This document shows positions 1 to 6,133 of a stretch of 64,000 nucleotides of DNA, piece after piece. Origin of the DNA: Bacteroidales bacterium (GTDB lineage: Bacteria; Bacteroidota; Bacteroidia; Bacteroidales; JAADGE01); assembly GCA_021648725.1 (NCBI GenBank), contig JAKISF010000010.1, positions 1-64,000 of the forward strand. Reading direction: 5' to 3'. How positions within the stretch are numbered: the stretch's first letter is position 1; each line of letters begins with the position of its first letter. The notes beneath the pieces were generated by a model that saw nothing but the letters and a program-made list of their open reading frames with translations, searched no databases and was not told where the DNA came from. The position numbers and the translations under genes were made by a program.

Positions 1-201
1 GAATGGATTGAAAATATCCTACATGGTGTTGCAACAAAATATTTACAAAACTATTTAAACTGGTTTAGGTTTAAGGAAATATATAAGGGAGTTGATATTA
101 TCAAGGAAATGATTAATAGTGCTCTTGACCCGACAGGCTATCTGAAATATCAAAATATTGAAGTTAATTATGCAATGTTTATTAAATCACAGAATATTTA
201 A
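1..201 (+). CDS. C-terminal end of a transposase-like protein (cut by window edge)
   Basis: The frame is open from base 1 and ends at TAA 199-201, giving 66 residues. It starts EWIENILHGVATKYLQNYLN and continues with an aromatic, basic helix. The HGVATKYLQNYLNWF pattern resembles the last helix of DDE transposases as I remember them, possibly the IS1595 group, but the catalytic domain lies outside the window and I cannot fix the family. A short palindrome 60 bases downstream (262-276) would fit an element end. The next gene runs towards it on the other strand. Confidence 0.5.
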   Translation, partial: EWIENILHGVATKYLQNYLNWFRFKEIYKGVDIIKEMINSALDPTGYLKYQNIEVNYAMFIKSQNI

Positions 202-400
202 ACCATAGCCTTGCTTTTTCATATGATATTATCTCGTTTTAAACTAAAAGCATCTTATTTTGGGGTAATTTACCCTGAAAAATTGTTTTATTTTGACTTT
301 GTAAAAAATATTGAAATTTTAACAAATATATATTGGGCTGACAATCAATAAAATATAAAAAATTCACATAAGGGATAAAGTATTATAATATTTTTTAATT
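202..400. other. Intergenic stretch with a GGGGTAA/TTACCC palindrome
   Basis: No convincing gene is visible. The only structure is the near-palindrome at 262-276 (GGGGTAATTTACCCT). It could be the terminal inverted repeat of the element whose transposase ends at 201, or a weak hairpin between two convergent genes. The matching left end is outside the window. Confidence 0.3.
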
Positions 401-1615
401 TTAATATAAAAAACCGAATAACCATAAAGGAATCTTATTTGCAAATCCTGTTTCAATATTATCAATTGAAAGAAACGAATTTTCAATATTCTTAATTTGT
501 TTATTATCCTTATTTTTTCCGCCAATTTCAAACGTATATTTATTATCTATCAAGAAATCACTGCTTTTAGTATAATTAACAACATGTTTATATCGTAATT
601 GATTCATAAAAAAAGTTTCTCTTTGAGTTCCTCTATTTATATTGTTTTTATCAATTGCAAAGGCTAAATTTGTATTATTTAAAAATATTTTTTGCGGCTT
701 ACTAAAAATTCTATTACCGATTACTTTTGCTCCGAGCGTATTAATAAGTTCTGCTTTTTCCAGCAAATTAAAATATTTAATTAATGTTCTTTGATCTGTA
801 ATATACAGTTTATTTGAAATATCACTTAAATTTACCGAATACGGAACAGTAGTTGCAACTGAAAATAATAATTGTTTTAATTTGGACAATGTTTCATATG
901 AAATATCCGAAACATAAGGAATGTCAGTTTCTATAACAACATTAATAATATCTGCTAATCTGTCATTATATTTTTCGGAACTTTCAATAAAAAAAGGATA
1001 ATAACCGGTTTGTAAATATTGTTTAAATTCCGGTAATATTTTTATTTTATTTATAATTTCATTACTGATATCTTGATGATTACTTATAAGTTCACTTAAA
1101 GAAAAAGATTTAAAATCTATTTCTCGATAAAATTGTAAATATTCTCTAAAAGACAATCCATTAAGAGAGTAAGAAGATTTTCTGCGACTTAAATCACCTT
1201 TACTTTGATATAATTGCAAAATCGAAGAACCTGAATATACTACAAATAAATCCGGTATAGTATCATATATATTTTTTAACTCTTGTGCCCAGTCAAGTTC
1301 TTTTTGCTTCTGAGGATATTTATGAACCTCATCAATAAATAAATATTGTCCGCCGTATTTAAAATACTCTTCGGCAGTTTCAAATAATTGGTTTTTATAA
1401 AAATAAGGAATATCTAATGAAATATACAAAACATTGTTACCCGTATCACTTAATTCTTTCGCCTTTTGAAGCATTAATGTTGTCTTACCCACACCTCTTG
1501 CCCCTTTAATTTCAATTAACTTTTCATTCCAATTAATTTGAGTAAATAAACTTCTTTTAAAATTTAATTTAACAGATTTTAATAACCTGTTGCTTATTTC
1601 GTGTAATTGTTCCAT
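401..1615 (-). CDS. AAA-family ATPase with DUF4143 domain
   Basis: A 404-residue cytosolic protein. The Walker A loop GARGVGKT is at residues 38-45 and the Walker B YLFIDEVHKY near residue 95; a sensor-like YSGSS follows. The C-terminal half matches the DUF4143 arrangement: a winged-helix region, then a degenerate nuclease-like fold around FLIDNKYTFEIGGKNK. Such proteins are common, spread horizontally in Bacteroidota, and have no settled function. The gene stands alone, next to a transposase tail, and has its own strong promoter with two palindromic sites upstream. The ATPase class is secure; its cellular role is not known. Confidence 0.85.
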   Translation of the reverse strand: MEQLHEISNRLLKSVKLNFKRSLFTQINWNEKLIEIKGARGVGKTTLMLQKAKELSDTGNNVLYISLDIPYFYKNQLFETAEEYFKYGGQYLFIDEVHKYPQKQKELDWAQELKNIYDTIPDLFVVYSGSSILQLYQSKGDLSRRKSSYSLNGLSFREYLQFYREIDFKSFSLSELISNHQDISNEIINKIKILPEFKQYLQTGYYPFFIESSEKYNDRLADIINVVIETDIPYVSDISYETLSKLKQLLFSVATTVPYSVNLSDISNKLYITDQRTLIKYFNLLEKAELINTLGAKVIGNRIFSKPQKIFLNNTNLAFAIDKNNINRGTQRETFFMNQLRYKHVVNYTKSSDFLIDNKYTFEIGGKNKDNKQIKNIENSFLSIDNIETGFANKIPLWLFGFLY

Positions 1616-1627
1616 TTATCTTTTTTA

Positions 1628-1659
1628 CAAAGATAAACAATTTTGTAATTAATTACAAA
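1628..1659 (-). promoter_or_regulatory. Promoter of the AAA/DUF4143 gene
   Basis: Read on the minus strand, TTTG (complement of 1656-1659) is followed by 20 bases and then TATCTTTG (complement of 1628-1635). This matches the Bacteroidota primary-sigma consensus TTTG / TAnnTTTG. The start codon at 1615 lies about 12 bases downstream, so the leader is very short. Confidence 0.7.
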
Positions 1660-1690
1660 CTAATTTAGCAGAAACATGTAATGTATTACA
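1642..1690. promoter_or_regulatory. Two tandem palindromic operator-like sites, TGTAAT-NN-ATTACA
   Basis: Site 1 (1642-1659) is a perfect 18-base palindrome, TTTGTAATTAATTACAAA, and overlaps the -33 element of the promoter. Site 2 (1677-1690) is TGTAATGTATTACA. Both share TGTAAT-NN-ATTACA and their centres are 33 bases apart, about three helical turns. This is what a dimeric repressor binding the same face of the DNA would use. The regulator is not identifiable here. Confidence 0.6.
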
Positions 1691-1845
1691 ATTTATTTGC
1701 AATTCTTTTCTGCGTTATGTACAGCTTTTCAACACCATATATTTTAACATTTGAATCTATATTTTAAAACCATATTAAGTAAAAACTTGTTAATTAGAAA
1801 TATAAGCGATAAAAAAATACGATTATAAAATATTTAATATTCATT

Positions 1846-2202
1846 TCATTTTTTTACTTTACTAAACTTAAAACCTTTTGGTGCTTTTTGAGAAATCTTT
1901 TTATGGTATGGGCTAATATAAATTGTTGCAATTTTTTCTTTAGCTACTGAAATAATATAAGCATCAATCGGATTCTCAATATTATTAACACTCATAGAAC
2001 CTCTCCTTTTAAATTCAATTTTATTTCCATCATTTGTTATCAGTCTTTTTAGGTAAACCGTGCTTCCAAAAACACTATTAACCGGTACCGGATTTGTAAT
2101 TTCAATTCCAAATTCTCCGAATCCTTCGGGTATAATATCTAAATCCGTCCCTTGTGGATTTTCATCTGACATTAGTTTCATTAGTTCCATTAATTCTTTC
2201 AT
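1846..2202 (-). CDS. Small conserved protein, last gene of the TerB-like/VWA operon
   Basis: 118 residues, no signal peptide or membrane segment. After a methionine-rich amphipathic start (an internal Met at 5, 8 or 11 could also be used), it has a compact, probably beta-rich domain with IPEGFGEFGIEITNPVPV and, near the end, ATIYISPYHKKISQKAPKGF. I recall similar small proteins in other bacteria without an assigned function. It lies 14 bases downstream of the lipoprotein gene and is presumably cotranscribed with it. No function is proposed. Confidence 0.7.
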   Translation of the reverse strand: MKELMELMKLMSDENPQGTDLDIIPEGFGEFGIEITNPVPVNSVFGSTVYLKRLITNDGNKIEFKRRGSMSVNNIENPIDAYIISVAKEKIATIYISPYHKKISQKAPKGFKFSKVKK

Positions 2203-2216
2203 TTTATAATTTTTTG

Positions 2217-3131
2217 TTATTTTATAATAAATTTTTCAATTCTTGTTTTTGTATATTCCGGCAAATCGGAATTGTAAAGCTTAAATGAGTTAACATTCAT
2301 TTCTGTAAACCATTTTGTCAAATATGCTTTTATTACATCTTCATCATTTTTATGTTGAGGTGAAGGATTAATTTCTAAAACCAAAATGTCAAGATTGTTC
2401 AAATCGTTACGTGTTGTAATATAGCCATAATCATCTTTTGTAATTTTTTCTTCCCAATTTGAATTTCGTAAATTATTTGATTTTATCAATTTTGGGAGTA
2501 AATACGAAGTCCTATTTTTTTGTTTATCTCTTGTATCAAAATGATATAAATAACCATCAGTTATAAGAACTAATATATTTCTGTAATTCTCATCTTGCTC
2601 TATACAATAATCTACAACATCATTCTTAAAAAAGCGCCAAGTGTCAGAACCGAGATATTTCTTTGTTTCAAGTGTTTTCGTATATATTTTTGATAAATTA
2701 CCTTTAAAACTTGATGAAATATTATTAAATATTTGTTTTTTTTCTTTTGGGCTTCTAATTTTTGACAAATCAATACTCAATTTTGAAGCAACGGTATTTA
2801 CCTCGCTATCTTGAGGACGTGGGCTAAATATAACTTTTAATTTCCCTTTTGTATTAAAAGCACCCTTACTTTCCATATCTTGCTTAAATAATTCAGTAAA
2901 ATAATTAACAATTTCAATATCTCTTTCAAAATGTTCCGGGCTTGCGGGATATTTTGTAGGTTCTATCCTATCTGATAGATCTAACAAAATTGTAATATTT
3001 AATTGCTTCTCTTTTTTAGTATCTACAATGTTAGTATCACTTGTGGTTTCTTCGCCTGAACTGTTGCCGTTCCCGCAACTATACAAACTTAACAAAATAA
3101 TTGGTATTATATAAAACTGTATCTTTCTCAT
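2217..3131 (-). CDS. Lipoprotein with a von Willebrand A-like fold
   Basis: 304 residues. The N-terminus is a lipoprotein signal: hydrophobic segment, then SLYSCG, making Cys19 the likely lipidated residue. After a Ser/Thr/Asn-rich linker, LNITILLDLSDRI resembles the first strand and metal-site loop of a VWA domain, but with DLSDR instead of the usual DxSxS. A later strand, RNILVLITDGYLYHF, supplies the typical TDG. This suggests a periplasmic or surface VWA-like domain with an altered MIDAS site. The gene sits 5 bases after the membrane-protein gene and 14 before the small gene. The fold is inferred from strands and motif spacing only. Confidence 0.7.
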   Translation of the reverse strand: MRKIQFYIIPIILLSLYSCGNGNSSGEETTSDTNIVDTKKEKQLNITILLDLSDRIEPTKYPASPEHFERDIEIVNYFTELFKQDMESKGAFNTKGKLKVIFSPRPQDSEVNTVASKLSIDLSKIRSPKEKKQIFNNISSSFKGNLSKIYTKTLETKKYLGSDTWRFFKNDVVDYCIEQDENYRNILVLITDGYLYHFDTRDKQKNRTSYLLPKLIKSNNLRNSNWEEKITKDDYGYITTRNDLNNLDILVLEINPSPQHKNDEDVIKAYLTKWFTEMNVNSFKLYNSDLPEYTKTRIEKFIIK

Positions 3132-3136
3132 AATAA

Positions 3137-4411
3137 TTAATTTACGTTATGTATTTTAAATTCTCTAATATTTATTTTAATAAATTCATCTGCTTTAAAT
3201 GTTGCTTCATCAATTCTTATTTGGTCTAATTTATTCGCATTCATCCATTCTAACCAACCTCCTAAGAATTCATGTAATATTTTGTCAAACTCTGTTGTAT
3301 CTATTATTACTCCATTAATTTTACCTTGCAGATTCTTTATAATTTTTTTAATCTCTGAAATATCATCAAATAATTTTCCAACTTTTAATCTTTTTGTATT
3401 TAAATCATCTTTTATATATGATATTTCCCTTTCTCTTGCTTTAATTTCTTGTTTTATTACATCAAGTTTGTCATATGCTGCTATAGTAAAATCGAAAACA
3501 AATCCCCAAATAATATAAACTACAAAACCTGCAAAAATAATTAACCAAAAATTTACAGATTTAAAAGCAAGATCAAAATTATATTCAGGCAAGTCTTGAA
3601 AACTATTACCAACCTTTATATTATATATCTTTTCTGTTATTTCATAAGCTAAAATTGCATCAAATACAAAAGTCACTAGAATTAAAGCTATAATCTGAAA
3701 ATACTTTTTTAATCCTTTACCTTTTTGAAATTGGTGTATCAAAAATCCCATACCAATAAAAACAAAAGGCATAGAAATAATAAGTATTAACTCTGTAACC
3801 CCATCTTTATATGCTTCTGAAATTGCATTTGGGTCAAATATTGAACTTGCAACACCTAAATCACTTAAAGAAAATGATTTAAAGAAGGCTGAAAAAGATG
3901 CTGAACTATAAAAAATAAATAGGTAAATTGTTAAAACAAGTAAAATTAACAAGCCAATAACAAATCCAACTTTACTCAATTTATCTGGCATCACTAAAAT
4001 AGAGTTCTTTCTAATTTCGTTTATTTCTCTTTTTAATTCCTCAATTTTATTTTCTTTTTCGGGTATGATTCTTTTTTCAATATGTCCAATTTTATCCTCT
4101 TTATCCTCTTTTTGCTCTTTATTAGAATTAAGTTCTGCAATTAATGGTTCTTTTAATCTATTTTGTGTATTCTCATCTCGTTGAACCATTTGTTTATGGT
4201 CTTCTCTTATTAATGCTAAACAAGCAAGTAAACCGGTATTTGCACCGTTTAATTTTTTTGCTTTATCAAAACCCCAGTTTTCATAGGATATTTTTTTTGG
4301 TTTATTTGTTTTATTATCAAACTTTTTTTCTTCAATATTCCTTGTATTTGTCAAATTGTTATTGTTAATTTTTGTCTTTAAACTTTCTTTTAATTTACTA
4401 AATTTCGTCAT
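3137..4411 (-). CDS. Four-helix membrane protein with flanking coiled coils
   Basis: 424 residues. A Lys/Asn-rich start is followed by a charged coiled coil (about residues 75-140), a transmembrane segment near 148-170, a loop, three more membrane segments (about 207-225, 238-257 and 285-310), and a second long coiled coil (about 315-370). The C-terminal 50 residues contain several Trp. I do not recognise a family. The architecture suggests a membrane anchor presenting two cytosolic coiled coils. It lies 4 bases after the TerB-like gene and 5 before the VWA lipoprotein, so the three are almost certainly made together and may form an envelope-spanning complex. Confidence 0.7.
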   Translation of the reverse strand: MTKFSKLKESLKTKINNNNLTNTRNIEEKKFDNKTNKPKKISYENWGFDKAKKLNGANTGLLACLALIREDHKQMVQRDENTQNRLKEPLIAELNSNKEQKEDKEDKIGHIEKRIIPEKENKIEELKREINEIRKNSILVMPDKLSKVGFVIGLLILLVLTIYLFIFYSSASFSAFFKSFSLSDLGVASSIFDPNAISEAYKDGVTELILIISMPFVFIGMGFLIHQFQKGKGLKKYFQIIALILVTFVFDAILAYEITEKIYNIKVGNSFQDLPEYNFDLAFKSVNFWLIIFAGFVVYIIWGFVFDFTIAAYDKLDVIKQEIKAREREISYIKDDLNTKRLKVGKLFDDISEIKKIIKNLQGKINGVIIDTTEFDKILHEFLGGWLEWMNANKLDQIRIDEATFKADEFIKINIREFKIHNVN

Positions 4412-4415
4412 AATC

Positions 4416-4823
4416 TTAGCTATTTAATAGTTTGTCAATTTCTTTATGTAATTGATCGTTCGTTAAGTCATTTTTTGCAATATCCAATAACCATTCTGTT
4501 AATTCGTTTGCTGTTTCACCTATAAACCCAAATTTATTACAAAAATCTAATAATGAAATGCGTTCTCTATCATCTACTTTACCGTCTGCCCAAATAATTC
4601 TTGCAAAATCAAACAAATATTCAATTTTTATAATAATATCATCCGGGATTGTAAATGGAACATTAGTTGGTTTAATGATAATTTGTTCAAATTCATTTTT
4701 ACTAATACCTTTACTTTCTGCTATTGAGATAATTGTTTCCATTTCTTTTTCATCAAATTCTGCATCACTCATAGCAATTAGATACATATTTAATAAATGG
4801 CTCTTCAACTCTTTTGTAAGCAT
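4416..4823 (-). CDS. TerB-like protein, first gene of an uncharacterised operon
   Basis: About 135 residues from ATG at 4823. The frame is open further upstream (to 4970), but those codons run through a hairpin element and look unlike protein, so the inner start MLTKELKSH is preferred. The sequence is all-helical with two acidic repeats, MSDAEFDEKEMETI and WADGKVDDRERISL. These are the paired metal-binding-like signatures of TerB/DjlA-N domains. TerB proteins are linked to tellurite resistance and membrane-associated stress complexes. Here it heads a tight operon with a membrane protein, a VWA-like lipoprotein and a small protein. Other ter genes are absent. Confidence 0.7.
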   Translation of the reverse strand: MLTKELKSHLLNMYLIAMSDAEFDEKEMETIISIAESKGISKNEFEQIIIKPTNVPFTIPDDIIIKIEYLFDFARIIWADGKVDDRERISLLDFCNKFGFIGETANELTEWLLDIAKNDLTNDQLHKEIDKLLNS

Positions 4824-4882
4824 ATCTTTTATTAAGTTTAAGTTCACTTCCAATTCCCAAAAAGCAAATTCATAAAAAAAGA

Positions 4883-4968
4883 GGCGTGGGAACTGTAACA
4901 AATCTGAAATCGAGGTATCCCCATACCCACATTGACAAATAAGAACAGCCCACGCCATAGGCGTGAGC
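4883..4968. repeat. Nested hairpin (REP-like) element upstream of the TerB-like operon
   Basis: Three inverted repeats are stacked here. The sequence 4948-4968 folds as GCCCACGCC-ATA-GGCGTGAGC. An 8-base arm GGCGTGGG at 4883-4890 can pair alternatively with CCCACGCC at 4949-4956. Between them GGTAT-CCCC-ATACC forms a third small hairpin. The GC-rich stems stand out in AT-rich surroundings. This looks like a REP-type or IS200-related palindromic element, or a structured leader of the operon; the sequence alone cannot choose. Confidence 0.5.
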
Positions 4969-5164
4969 ATTAATCTTATTTCTTGTCAATGATAAAAAAA
5001 TAGGGATTTTCGATTTCAAGAAAATAAGCTAACGCTTTTATCTTTAATTATTTTTATTTATGTCATAATATTTGTTTTTTTGTTGTTTCTGTAAAAGTAT
5101 ATTTTTTGTTCTTTAAAACCTAATAATTATTGTTTTTACTAATTGAATTTACAAAATTTAATTT

Positions 5165-6133
5165 ATGAACACATTCGGACAAATTTTCAAAATACAAATC
5201 TTCGGAGAATCGCACGGTGATTCTGTCGGTGTGGTAATTGACGGTTGCCCTGCCGGAATTTCAATAAAAGAAGAAGACTTTAAACATGATTTATTAAGAC
5301 GTAAAAGCGGTGCAAAAGGAACAACTTCTCGAAAAGAAGAGGATAAACCTCAAATTATCAGTGGGATATACAATAACTTTTCAACCGGTGCTCCGATAAC
5401 GGTTCTTTTTAAAAATACAAATACCCGTTCTTCCGATTATAATTTCAGAAATCATCCCAGACCGGGACATGCCGATTTTACAGCCGATAAAAAATACAAT
5501 TCATATAATGACGACAGGGGAGGTGGTCATTTTTCGGGAAGATTAACTGTAGCACTTGTTGCTGCCGGTGTAATTGCAAAAAAGATTATTTCAAAAATTA
5601 CAATAAAAGCAAAACTGACGGAAGCAGGAGGAAGTACAAATATTAATGAAGCCGTTGACGAAGCAATACAATCAAAAAACTCAATCGGCGGTATTATCGA
5701 ATGCAGAGCAAGCAATATTCCTGTCGGTTTAGGCGAACCGTTTTTTAATTCAGTTGAATCTTTAATAAGTCATGCAATTTTTTCAATCCCGGGTATAAAA
5801 GGCATTGAATTCGGCAGCGGTTTTGAAGCCGCAAGAATGAAAGGTTCCGACCATAATGATTTGATTATTAACAAATCAGGCGAAACAAAAACCAATCATG
5901 CAGGGGGCATAAACGGAGGCATTACAAACGGAAATGACTTATTTTTTAAAGTTGCGGTAAAACCGACTTCAAGCATTTCTATTCCGCAAGAAACCTATAA
6001 TTTTGAATCAAATAAAATTGAAACATTAGAAATTAAAGGCAGGCATGATGCCTGTTTCGCACTCAGAGTTCCCGTAATTGTTGAAGCAGTTACGGCTTGT
6101 GTTTTGGCAGATTTGTTTTTAATTTCGAATTAA
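5165..6133 (+). CDS. aroC: Chorismate synthase
   Basis: Converts 5-enolpyruvylshikimate-3-phosphate to chorismate, the last shared step of aromatic amino-acid synthesis, using reduced FMN. 322 residues begin NTFGQIFKIQIFGESHGDSV, the family's first signature; HPRPGHADFT and DRGGGHFSGR follow, then HAGGINGGITNG and, near the end, GRHDACFALRVPVIVEA. All main signature blocks are present although the protein is shorter than the usual 350-360. The FMN-site RHD is intact. It is followed after 6 bases by the manganese exporter gene, so the two may share a transcript. Confidence 0.95.
   Translation: MNTFGQIFKIQIFGESHGDSVGVVIDGCPAGISIKEEDFKHDLLRRKSGAKGTTSRKEEDKPQIISGIYNNFSTGAPITVLFKNTNTRSSDYNFRNHPRPGHADFTADKKYNSYNDDRGGGHFSGRLTVALVAAGVIAKKIISKITIKAKLTEAGGSTNINEAVDEAIQSKNSIGGIIECRASNIPVGLGEPFFNSVESLISHAIFSIPGIKGIEFGSGFEAARMKGSDHNDLIINKSGETKTNHAGGINGGITNGNDLFFKVAVKPTSSISIPQETYNFESNKIETLEIKGRHDACFALRVPVIVEAVTACVLADLFLISN

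What the first reader, a model, noticed from the sequence alone, without database searches (positions are those of the whole stretch)
1846..4823. Uncharacterised four-gene operon: TerB-like + coiled-coil membrane protein + VWA-like lipoprotein + small conserved protein
Gaps of 4, 5 and 14 bases between the genes are seen directly, so they form one unit. The parts span cytosol (TerB-like), inner membrane with two coiled coils, and periplasm/outer membrane (lipoprotein with altered MIDAS, DLSDR). TerB and VWA proteins cooperate in tellurite/stress and phage-related systems, but no canonical ter gene is present. It lies in an accessory stretch beside a transposase tail and an AAA/DUF4143 gene. 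I infer a trans-envelope stress or defence complex. This is my best candidate for an undescribed system.
Basis: partly seen in the sequence, partly recalled or inferred. Interest (0 to 1): 0.7.

Follow-up and report, generated by a model that had tools for sequence, protein, structure and literature searches.

The report
Conserved TerB–membrane–VWA three-gene envelope module
Three of the four genes form a widespread, undescribed module of Bacteroidota that links the space outside the inner membrane to the cytoplasm; in relatives it swaps its cytosolic part for a nuclease or sits inside CRISPR loci, so it is probably a phage-defence or stress alarm, although no function has been tested.

Summary
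Three form a tightly conserved operon: TerB (135 aa), a 424-aa four-helix membrane protein with coiled coils at both ends ("CC"), and a lipoprotein with a VWA fold. The fourth gene (118 aa) is not part of it. Of 100 CC loci read, 83 are TerB-CC-VWA with median gaps of 2 and 4 bp; CC lacks its VWA only where the contig ends. The VWA metal site is altered but invariant (D51-x-S53-x-R55, D192 in 109/109); TerB keeps two D-x6-E pairs in 94/94. The CC-VWA pair is a core with exchangeable partners: a PLD nuclease fused to CC replaces TerB in four loci, and TerB-less pairs lie in type III CRISPR-Cas loci three times, once as a CC-VWA fusion. Chitinophaga copies carry caspase and TIR genes upstream; many others share an island with a two-component system and nucleases. 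I infer an envelope sensor with a cytosolic effector arm, most likely anti-phage, analogous to Zorya but not a member. No experiment supports this; envelope or metal stress remains a serious rival. I found no description of the module in the literature available to me.

The parts
4416..4823 (-). TerB-domain protein, 135 aa, predicted cytosolic; first gene of the conserved trio
   Evidence: Pfam PF05099 E=1.3e-6 above cut-off; aligned family A5; D20/E27 and D80/E87 invariant in 94/94
3137..4411 (-). CC: 424-aa inner-membrane protein, TM helices at residues 148-166, 208-226, 240-258, 288-306; N- and C-terminal coiled-coil regions predicted cytosolic
   Evidence: hydropathy and loop charge, AF2 helices, family A3; no Pfam/NCBIfam/PADLOC family above cut-off; no fold match beyond generic coiled coil
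2217..3131 (-). VWA-fold lipoprotein, 304 aa; lipobox Cys19, altered MIDAS D51-L-S53-D-R55, G161-x-D163, T191-D192-G193
   Evidence: AF2 + Foldseek; Cys19 in 103/109 homologues; D51, S53, R55, D192 in 109/109
1846..2202 (-). S118: 118-aa protein, co-directional, 14 bp after the VWA gene; not part of the conserved trio (passenger or local addition)
   Evidence: no homologue in the other module loci; one 53% relative in the related genomes searched, in a Zorya II/BREX locus without the trio
4948..4968 (-). GC-rich hairpin upstream of the operon, within a short element that has one 76% relative elsewhere in the genome

Best explanation
The trio is a trans-envelope alarm. The VWA lipoprotein sits in the periplasm and binds a ligand or partner through its altered metal site. 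It signals to the four-helix CC protein in the inner membrane. CC relays the signal through its cytosolic coiled coils to a cytosolic partner: a separate TerB protein here, a fused PLD nuclease in some relatives, perhaps CRISPR type III machinery in others. The most likely trigger is phage attack on the envelope or DNA entry, and the most likely outcome is an anti-phage or abortive response. Shown here: gene order, conservation, folds of TerB and VWA, partner exchange, CC-VWA fusion, type III CRISPR and caspase/TIR neighbourhoods. Inferred: periplasmic location, physical complex, trigger, direction of signalling and output.
For: 83 of 100 loci are TerB-CC-VWA with median gaps 2 and 4 bp; no CC lacks VWA unless the contig ends within about 110 bp downstream; a VWA-baited search also finds CC beside it. 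Distances among the trio correlate at r 0.90/0.90 (CC-VWA/CC-TerB) against 0.64-0.68 of CC with the neighbouring HK/RR in the same 46 loci. CC-VWA natural fusion in Runella plasmid pSP2_2 inside a type III-B locus with a CRISPR array. TerB-less CC-VWA also beside type III genes in L034 (52 repeats, Cas1, CAPP-like) and L153 (RT-Cas1, Card1, NE0113). PLDc_2 fused to CC in L036, L037, L162, L164; L162 and L164 lie in the same HK-RR island where TerB-CC usually sits. Caspase (PF00656) and TIR-FGE genes directly upstream in Chitinophaga. HsdR_N, SNase and DNase-I-like genes recur nearby. Cas1 within 8 kb: 7 in 1.34 Mb, against about 0.13 per Mb in 119 class genomes. TerB is a component of the anti-phage systems Shango and Bunzi (PMC10250203, PMC10952713).
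Against: No experiment. The window copy itself has no nuclease, caspase, TIR or CRISPR gene beside it, only an AAA_14 ATPase. The recurrent HK/RR and small-protein island (DUF4236, DUF1508, DUF4177, YidD, DUF6804) fits a regulated stress response as well as defence. TerB has no known catalytic activity. PADLOC has no model matching CC or VWA. The CRISPR and caspase/TIR contexts are a minority, and the caspase/TIR cases come mostly from one genus. I ran no enrichment control for nucleases, TIR or caspase; the PADLOC scan of 150 neighbours had no control set.
Confidence: 0.5

Rival explanations
1. An envelope- or metal-stress response module with no role in phage defence: VWA senses envelope damage or metal, TerB acts as in Ter systems, and the adjacent two-component system induces it.
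For: TPR histidine kinase and response regulator in about half of the loci; TerB keeps the acidic D-x6-E pairs that could bind metal; many small envelope-type proteins in the island.
Against: PLD-nuclease replacement of TerB, type III CRISPR loci and caspase/TIR operons are hard to explain by stress alone; no canonical ter gene among the recurrent neighbours.
Confidence: 0.3
2. CC-VWA is a general envelope scaffold or anchor with no sensing role; its partners use it only to be tethered at the membrane.
For: Partners are exchangeable; CC has no recognisable catalytic domain.
Against: The VWA site is invariant in 109 diverse homologues, which suggests ligand binding.
Confidence: 0.13
3. The four genes are an incidental cluster of unrelated genes in an accessory stretch.
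For: S118 is not conserved with the rest.
Against: Trio conservation across Bacteroidota.
Confidence: 0.02

Closest known systems
Zorya (types I and II)
   Same: Works similarly by architecture: inner-membrane protein with a long cytosolic helical part, a periplasmic partner, and a cytosolic effector module (ZorE nickase in type II; PMC11890865).
   Different: CC has no MotA/ExbB/TolQ hit and no ZorA model match; the periplasmic part is a VWA lipoprotein, not a peptidoglycan-binding MotB/OmpA domain. Not a member.
Shango and Bunzi (TerB-containing anti-phage systems)
   Same: Carry a TerB domain.
   Different: Shango is TerB + ATPase + helicase; no ATPase or helicase belongs to the trio. I could not read the Bunzi gene content here.
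Ter systems / TerY-P triads
   Same: TerY-P has a VWA protein and is linked to tellurite resistance and restriction systems (citing Anantharaman 2012, which is not held).
   Different: Here no kinase or phosphatase belongs to the module and no ter gene other than terB was recognised; VWA is a lipoprotein with DxSxR rather than DxSxS.
vWA-MoxR ternary conflict systems
   Same: A VWA component, with caspase, TIR or FGE-type genes in some loci.
   Different: No MoxR AAA+ ATPase, VMAP or iSTAND component was recognised among recurrent neighbours.
CRISPR-linked vWA systems reported in the FLSHclust survey (PMC10910872)
   Same: That paper reports vWA-related systems associated with CRISPR loci alongside transmembrane proteins; the CRISPR-linked CC-VWA pair may be among them.
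   Different: Could not be checked, since supplements are not readable here; its main text does not mention TerB.

Membership tests
TerB (PF05099) | Profile score above Pfam cut-off | tested here: met
   29.2 bits against 24.4
VWA fold | VWA three-dimensional fold | tested here: met
   Foldseek top PDB matches are mainly VWA proteins, E from 1.3e-4, though TM-scores are only about 0.3-0.4 by query length and azoreductases appear lower down
VWA fold | Canonical MIDAS DxSxS...T...D | tested here: not met
   DxSxR invariant, D192 invariant; D163 in place of the Thr is a tentative reading
Zorya | ZorA MotA/ExbB/TolQ domain | tested here: not met
   No PF01618 or ZorA model hit for CC
Zorya | ZorB MotB/OmpA peptidoglycan-binding domain | tested here: not met
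   VWA lipoprotein; no such hit
Canonical tellurite-resistance operon | terC/terD/terZ-type genes beside terB | tested here: not met
   Neighbour clusters and nearby window ORFs show none recognised; judged by eye and cluster, not by a dedicated profile
vWA-MoxR ternary system | MoxR AAA+ ATPase in the operon | tested here: inconclusive
   None recognised among recurrent neighbours, but no MoxR profile was run on all neighbours
Type III CRISPR-associated | Located in a type III locus | tested here: not met
   Not for the window copy; met for TerB-less relatives L034, L045, L153
Anti-phage system | Protects a host against phage | not testable with these tools
   needs a plaque assay

The most novel reading that the evidence does not exclude
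CC-VWA is a general-purpose envelope sensor that bacteria plug into different immune outputs: TerB, PLD nuclease, caspase/TIR and type III CRISPR, giving CRISPR systems an input from the cell envelope.
Probability: 0.25. Interest if true: 0.85.

Novelty: new variant of a known kind. Interest (0 to 1): 0.62.

Why it matters
Two of the three proteins have no family in Pfam, NCBIfam or PADLOC, yet the module occurs in roughly 5% of sampled genomes of its class and phylum. If it is an envelope alarm with exchangeable effectors, it would give TerB, a domain of unclear role, a concrete partner set, and link envelope sensing to type III CRISPR in a testable way.

Tried and rejected
Four-gene operon: rejected, S118 is not conserved with the trio. 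Zorya membership for CC: rejected. Phage or prophage origin: no match in 50,697 phage records and no relative among IMG/VR candidates. PDB fold match for CC: only generic coiled-coil hits, E no better than 6.6e-3. Structured RNA near the operon: no Rfam match in window 1-6000. PADLOC scan of 150 neighbours gave defence hits but had no control and is only a lead. L151 beside a CRISPR-like gene: kept as weak, since Pfam gave no family for that gene. One alignment call and one Pfam call failed on wrong frames; the Pfam scan was repeated.

Full report
Observation. All four ORFs are at the stated positions on the minus strand, with gaps of 4, 5 and 14 bases. The TerB start is 4823: the longer reading to 4970 has no support in the family alignment. 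The TerB protein passes the Pfam cut-off (E=1.3e-6). The other three proteins have no Pfam, NCBIfam or PADLOC family above cut-off.

The lipoprotein is a VWA protein by fold. Its AlphaFold2 model from 16 homologues (mean pLDDT 82.9) matches mainly VWA structures in the PDB: TFIIH p34, factor B, SpaC, Rpn10, VWF A1/A2 and integrin I domains, best E 1.3e-4. TM-scores are modest (about 0.3-0.4 by query length) and some azoreductases appear lower in the list. The metal-site motif is not canonical. Across 109 homologues D51, S53, R55, D71, G161, D192 and G193 are invariant, D163 is D in 103 and N in 6, and the lipobox cysteine is present in 103.

The CC protein has four predicted TM helices and long helical arms. 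The TM2-TM3 loop carries four positive and no negative charges while the two other loops are net negative, which puts both arms in the cytosol by the positive-inside rule. The AlphaFold2 model is helical throughout (pLDDT 83.0, pTM 0.53), and Foldseek returned only generic coiled-coil matches.

Distribution. CC occurs in 6 of 197 relatives and 19 of 395 class genomes, a few of them weak partial hits; VWA occurs in 25 of 393 phylum genomes, two of them weak. A scan of one genome for each of 84,980 species gave 319 relatives, of which the best 80 were read. With the other fetched loci this makes 100 CC loci: 83 have TerB directly upstream and VWA directly downstream, and in the 83 trios measured the median gaps are 2 and 4 bp. 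Loci without a detected VWA (L015, L065, L071) end within about 110 bp downstream. The sample was baited with CC; searching with VWA instead also found CC beside it in all 14 newly fetched loci that hold a module. Pairwise distances correlate at 0.90 (CC-VWA) and 0.90 (CC-TerB) but 0.64-0.68 between CC and the neighbouring HK and RR in the same 46 loci. Hits in Treponema, Acidobacteria and Solirubrobacterales MAG contigs may be binning errors.

Exchangeable partners. In L036, L037, L162 and L164 a PLDc_2 domain is fused to the N-terminus of CC and no TerB is present. In L162 and L164 this fusion occupies the place of TerB-CC within the same HK-RR-linked island. In Runella sp. SP2 plasmid pSP2_2 CC and VWA are one 704-aa protein inside a type III-B CRISPR locus with cmr genes, cas1, cas2, a primase-polymerase and a repeat array. 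In L034 the pair lies beside Cas1, a BT4734-like_N (CAPP-like) protein and a 52-copy repeat array. In L153 it lies beside Card1, NE0113 and an RT-Cas1 fusion. L151 carries only one CRISPR-like gene that Pfam does not recognise, so I count three clear type III cases, not four. On a VWA tree TerB carriers cluster (6 changes against 15.3 in shuffles), PLD carriers form one weakly supported group, and the four CRISPR-labelled rows need three changes; several of these branches are long, so their placement is unsure.

Neighbourhood. A response regulator and a TPR histidine kinase recur in 50 and 49 loci, with DUF4236, DUF1508, DUF4177, YidD and DUF6804 proteins, SNase (16 loci), DNase-I-like (15) and HsdR_N-type (12) nucleases (DUF4177 and YidD named by eye). 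In Chitinophaga a caspase and a TIR-FGE protein precede DUF1508 and TerB. An McrBC-type protein lies nearby in four loci by clustering, confirmed by Pfam for one Pontibacter. Cas1 lies within 8 kb in 7 loci, in 1.34 Mb of DNA, against 56 matches in 119 class genomes of roughly 3.6 Mb each, so about 0.13 per Mb. Several of the seven come from the same or related genera, so they are not seven independent events.

The window copy. It sits between aroC and a contig end. In the eight same-genus genomes in which aroC was found, the trio does not precede aroC, so it is accessory here. None of the nuclease, TIR, caspase or CRISPR neighbours is present beside it. The fourth gene, S118, has one 53% relative among the related genomes searched; that relative lies directly upstream of ZorA2, ZorB2 and ZorE2 in a locus with PglZ and BrxL, and no CC was found in that genome. 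Relatives also occur on plasmids of Vibrio, Hymenobacter, Rhizobium, Shewanella and Aeromonas. S118 is therefore a separate family that can neighbour defence genes, not a module component.

Interpretation. I infer an envelope sensor (VWA), a membrane relay (CC) and a cytosolic effector or adaptor (TerB or PLD). It resembles Zorya in plan but fails its defining domains. Defence is favoured by the partner exchange and the CRISPR and caspase/TIR contexts; a stress response is the main rival. No function has been tested. The literature check covers only open-licence papers and no supplements; the FLSHclust survey reports vWA systems with transmembrane proteins near CRISPR and could already include the CRISPR-linked form.

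Noticed in passing
L182:3054-6924 (G175:C6): A relative of the window's 118-aa protein lies directly upstream of ZorA2, ZorB2 and ZorE2 in a locus that also holds PglZ and BrxL.
   Followed up: partly
window 4875-4968: Short hairpin-bearing element just upstream of the operon, with one 76% relative elsewhere in the genome (C5); could be a mobile-element end.
   Followed up: partly
L045:7410-9524 (Runella sp. SP2 pSP2_2): CC and VWA fused into one 704-aa protein between type III-B effector genes and the primase-polymerase/cas2/cas1 genes.
   Followed up: yes
L052, L054, L062, L064, L066, L069 (Chitinophaga): Caspase, TIR-FGE and DUF1508 genes directly upstream of the TerB-CC-VWA module (TerB missing in L064), in the same orientation.
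   Followed up: partly
L025-L032, L156-L164: Recurrent variable island: TPR histidine kinase, response regulator, then small proteins, nucleases and the module; itself apparently undescribed.
   Followed up: partly
L185, L186 (Shewanella and Aeromonas plasmids): Shared operon of Hsp70-like, ATP-binding, peptidoglycan-binding and RDD proteins that contains a relative of the 118-aa protein.
   Followed up: no
L152, L154: TerB-less CC-VWA pairs beside unannotated multi-gene clusters.
   Followed up: no
window 401-1615; L034:2229-3476: AAA_14-type ATPase beside the module in the window, and a similar-looking ATPase in the L034 CRISPR locus (the second seen by eye only); common in Bacteroidota, may be coincidence.
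   Followed up: no
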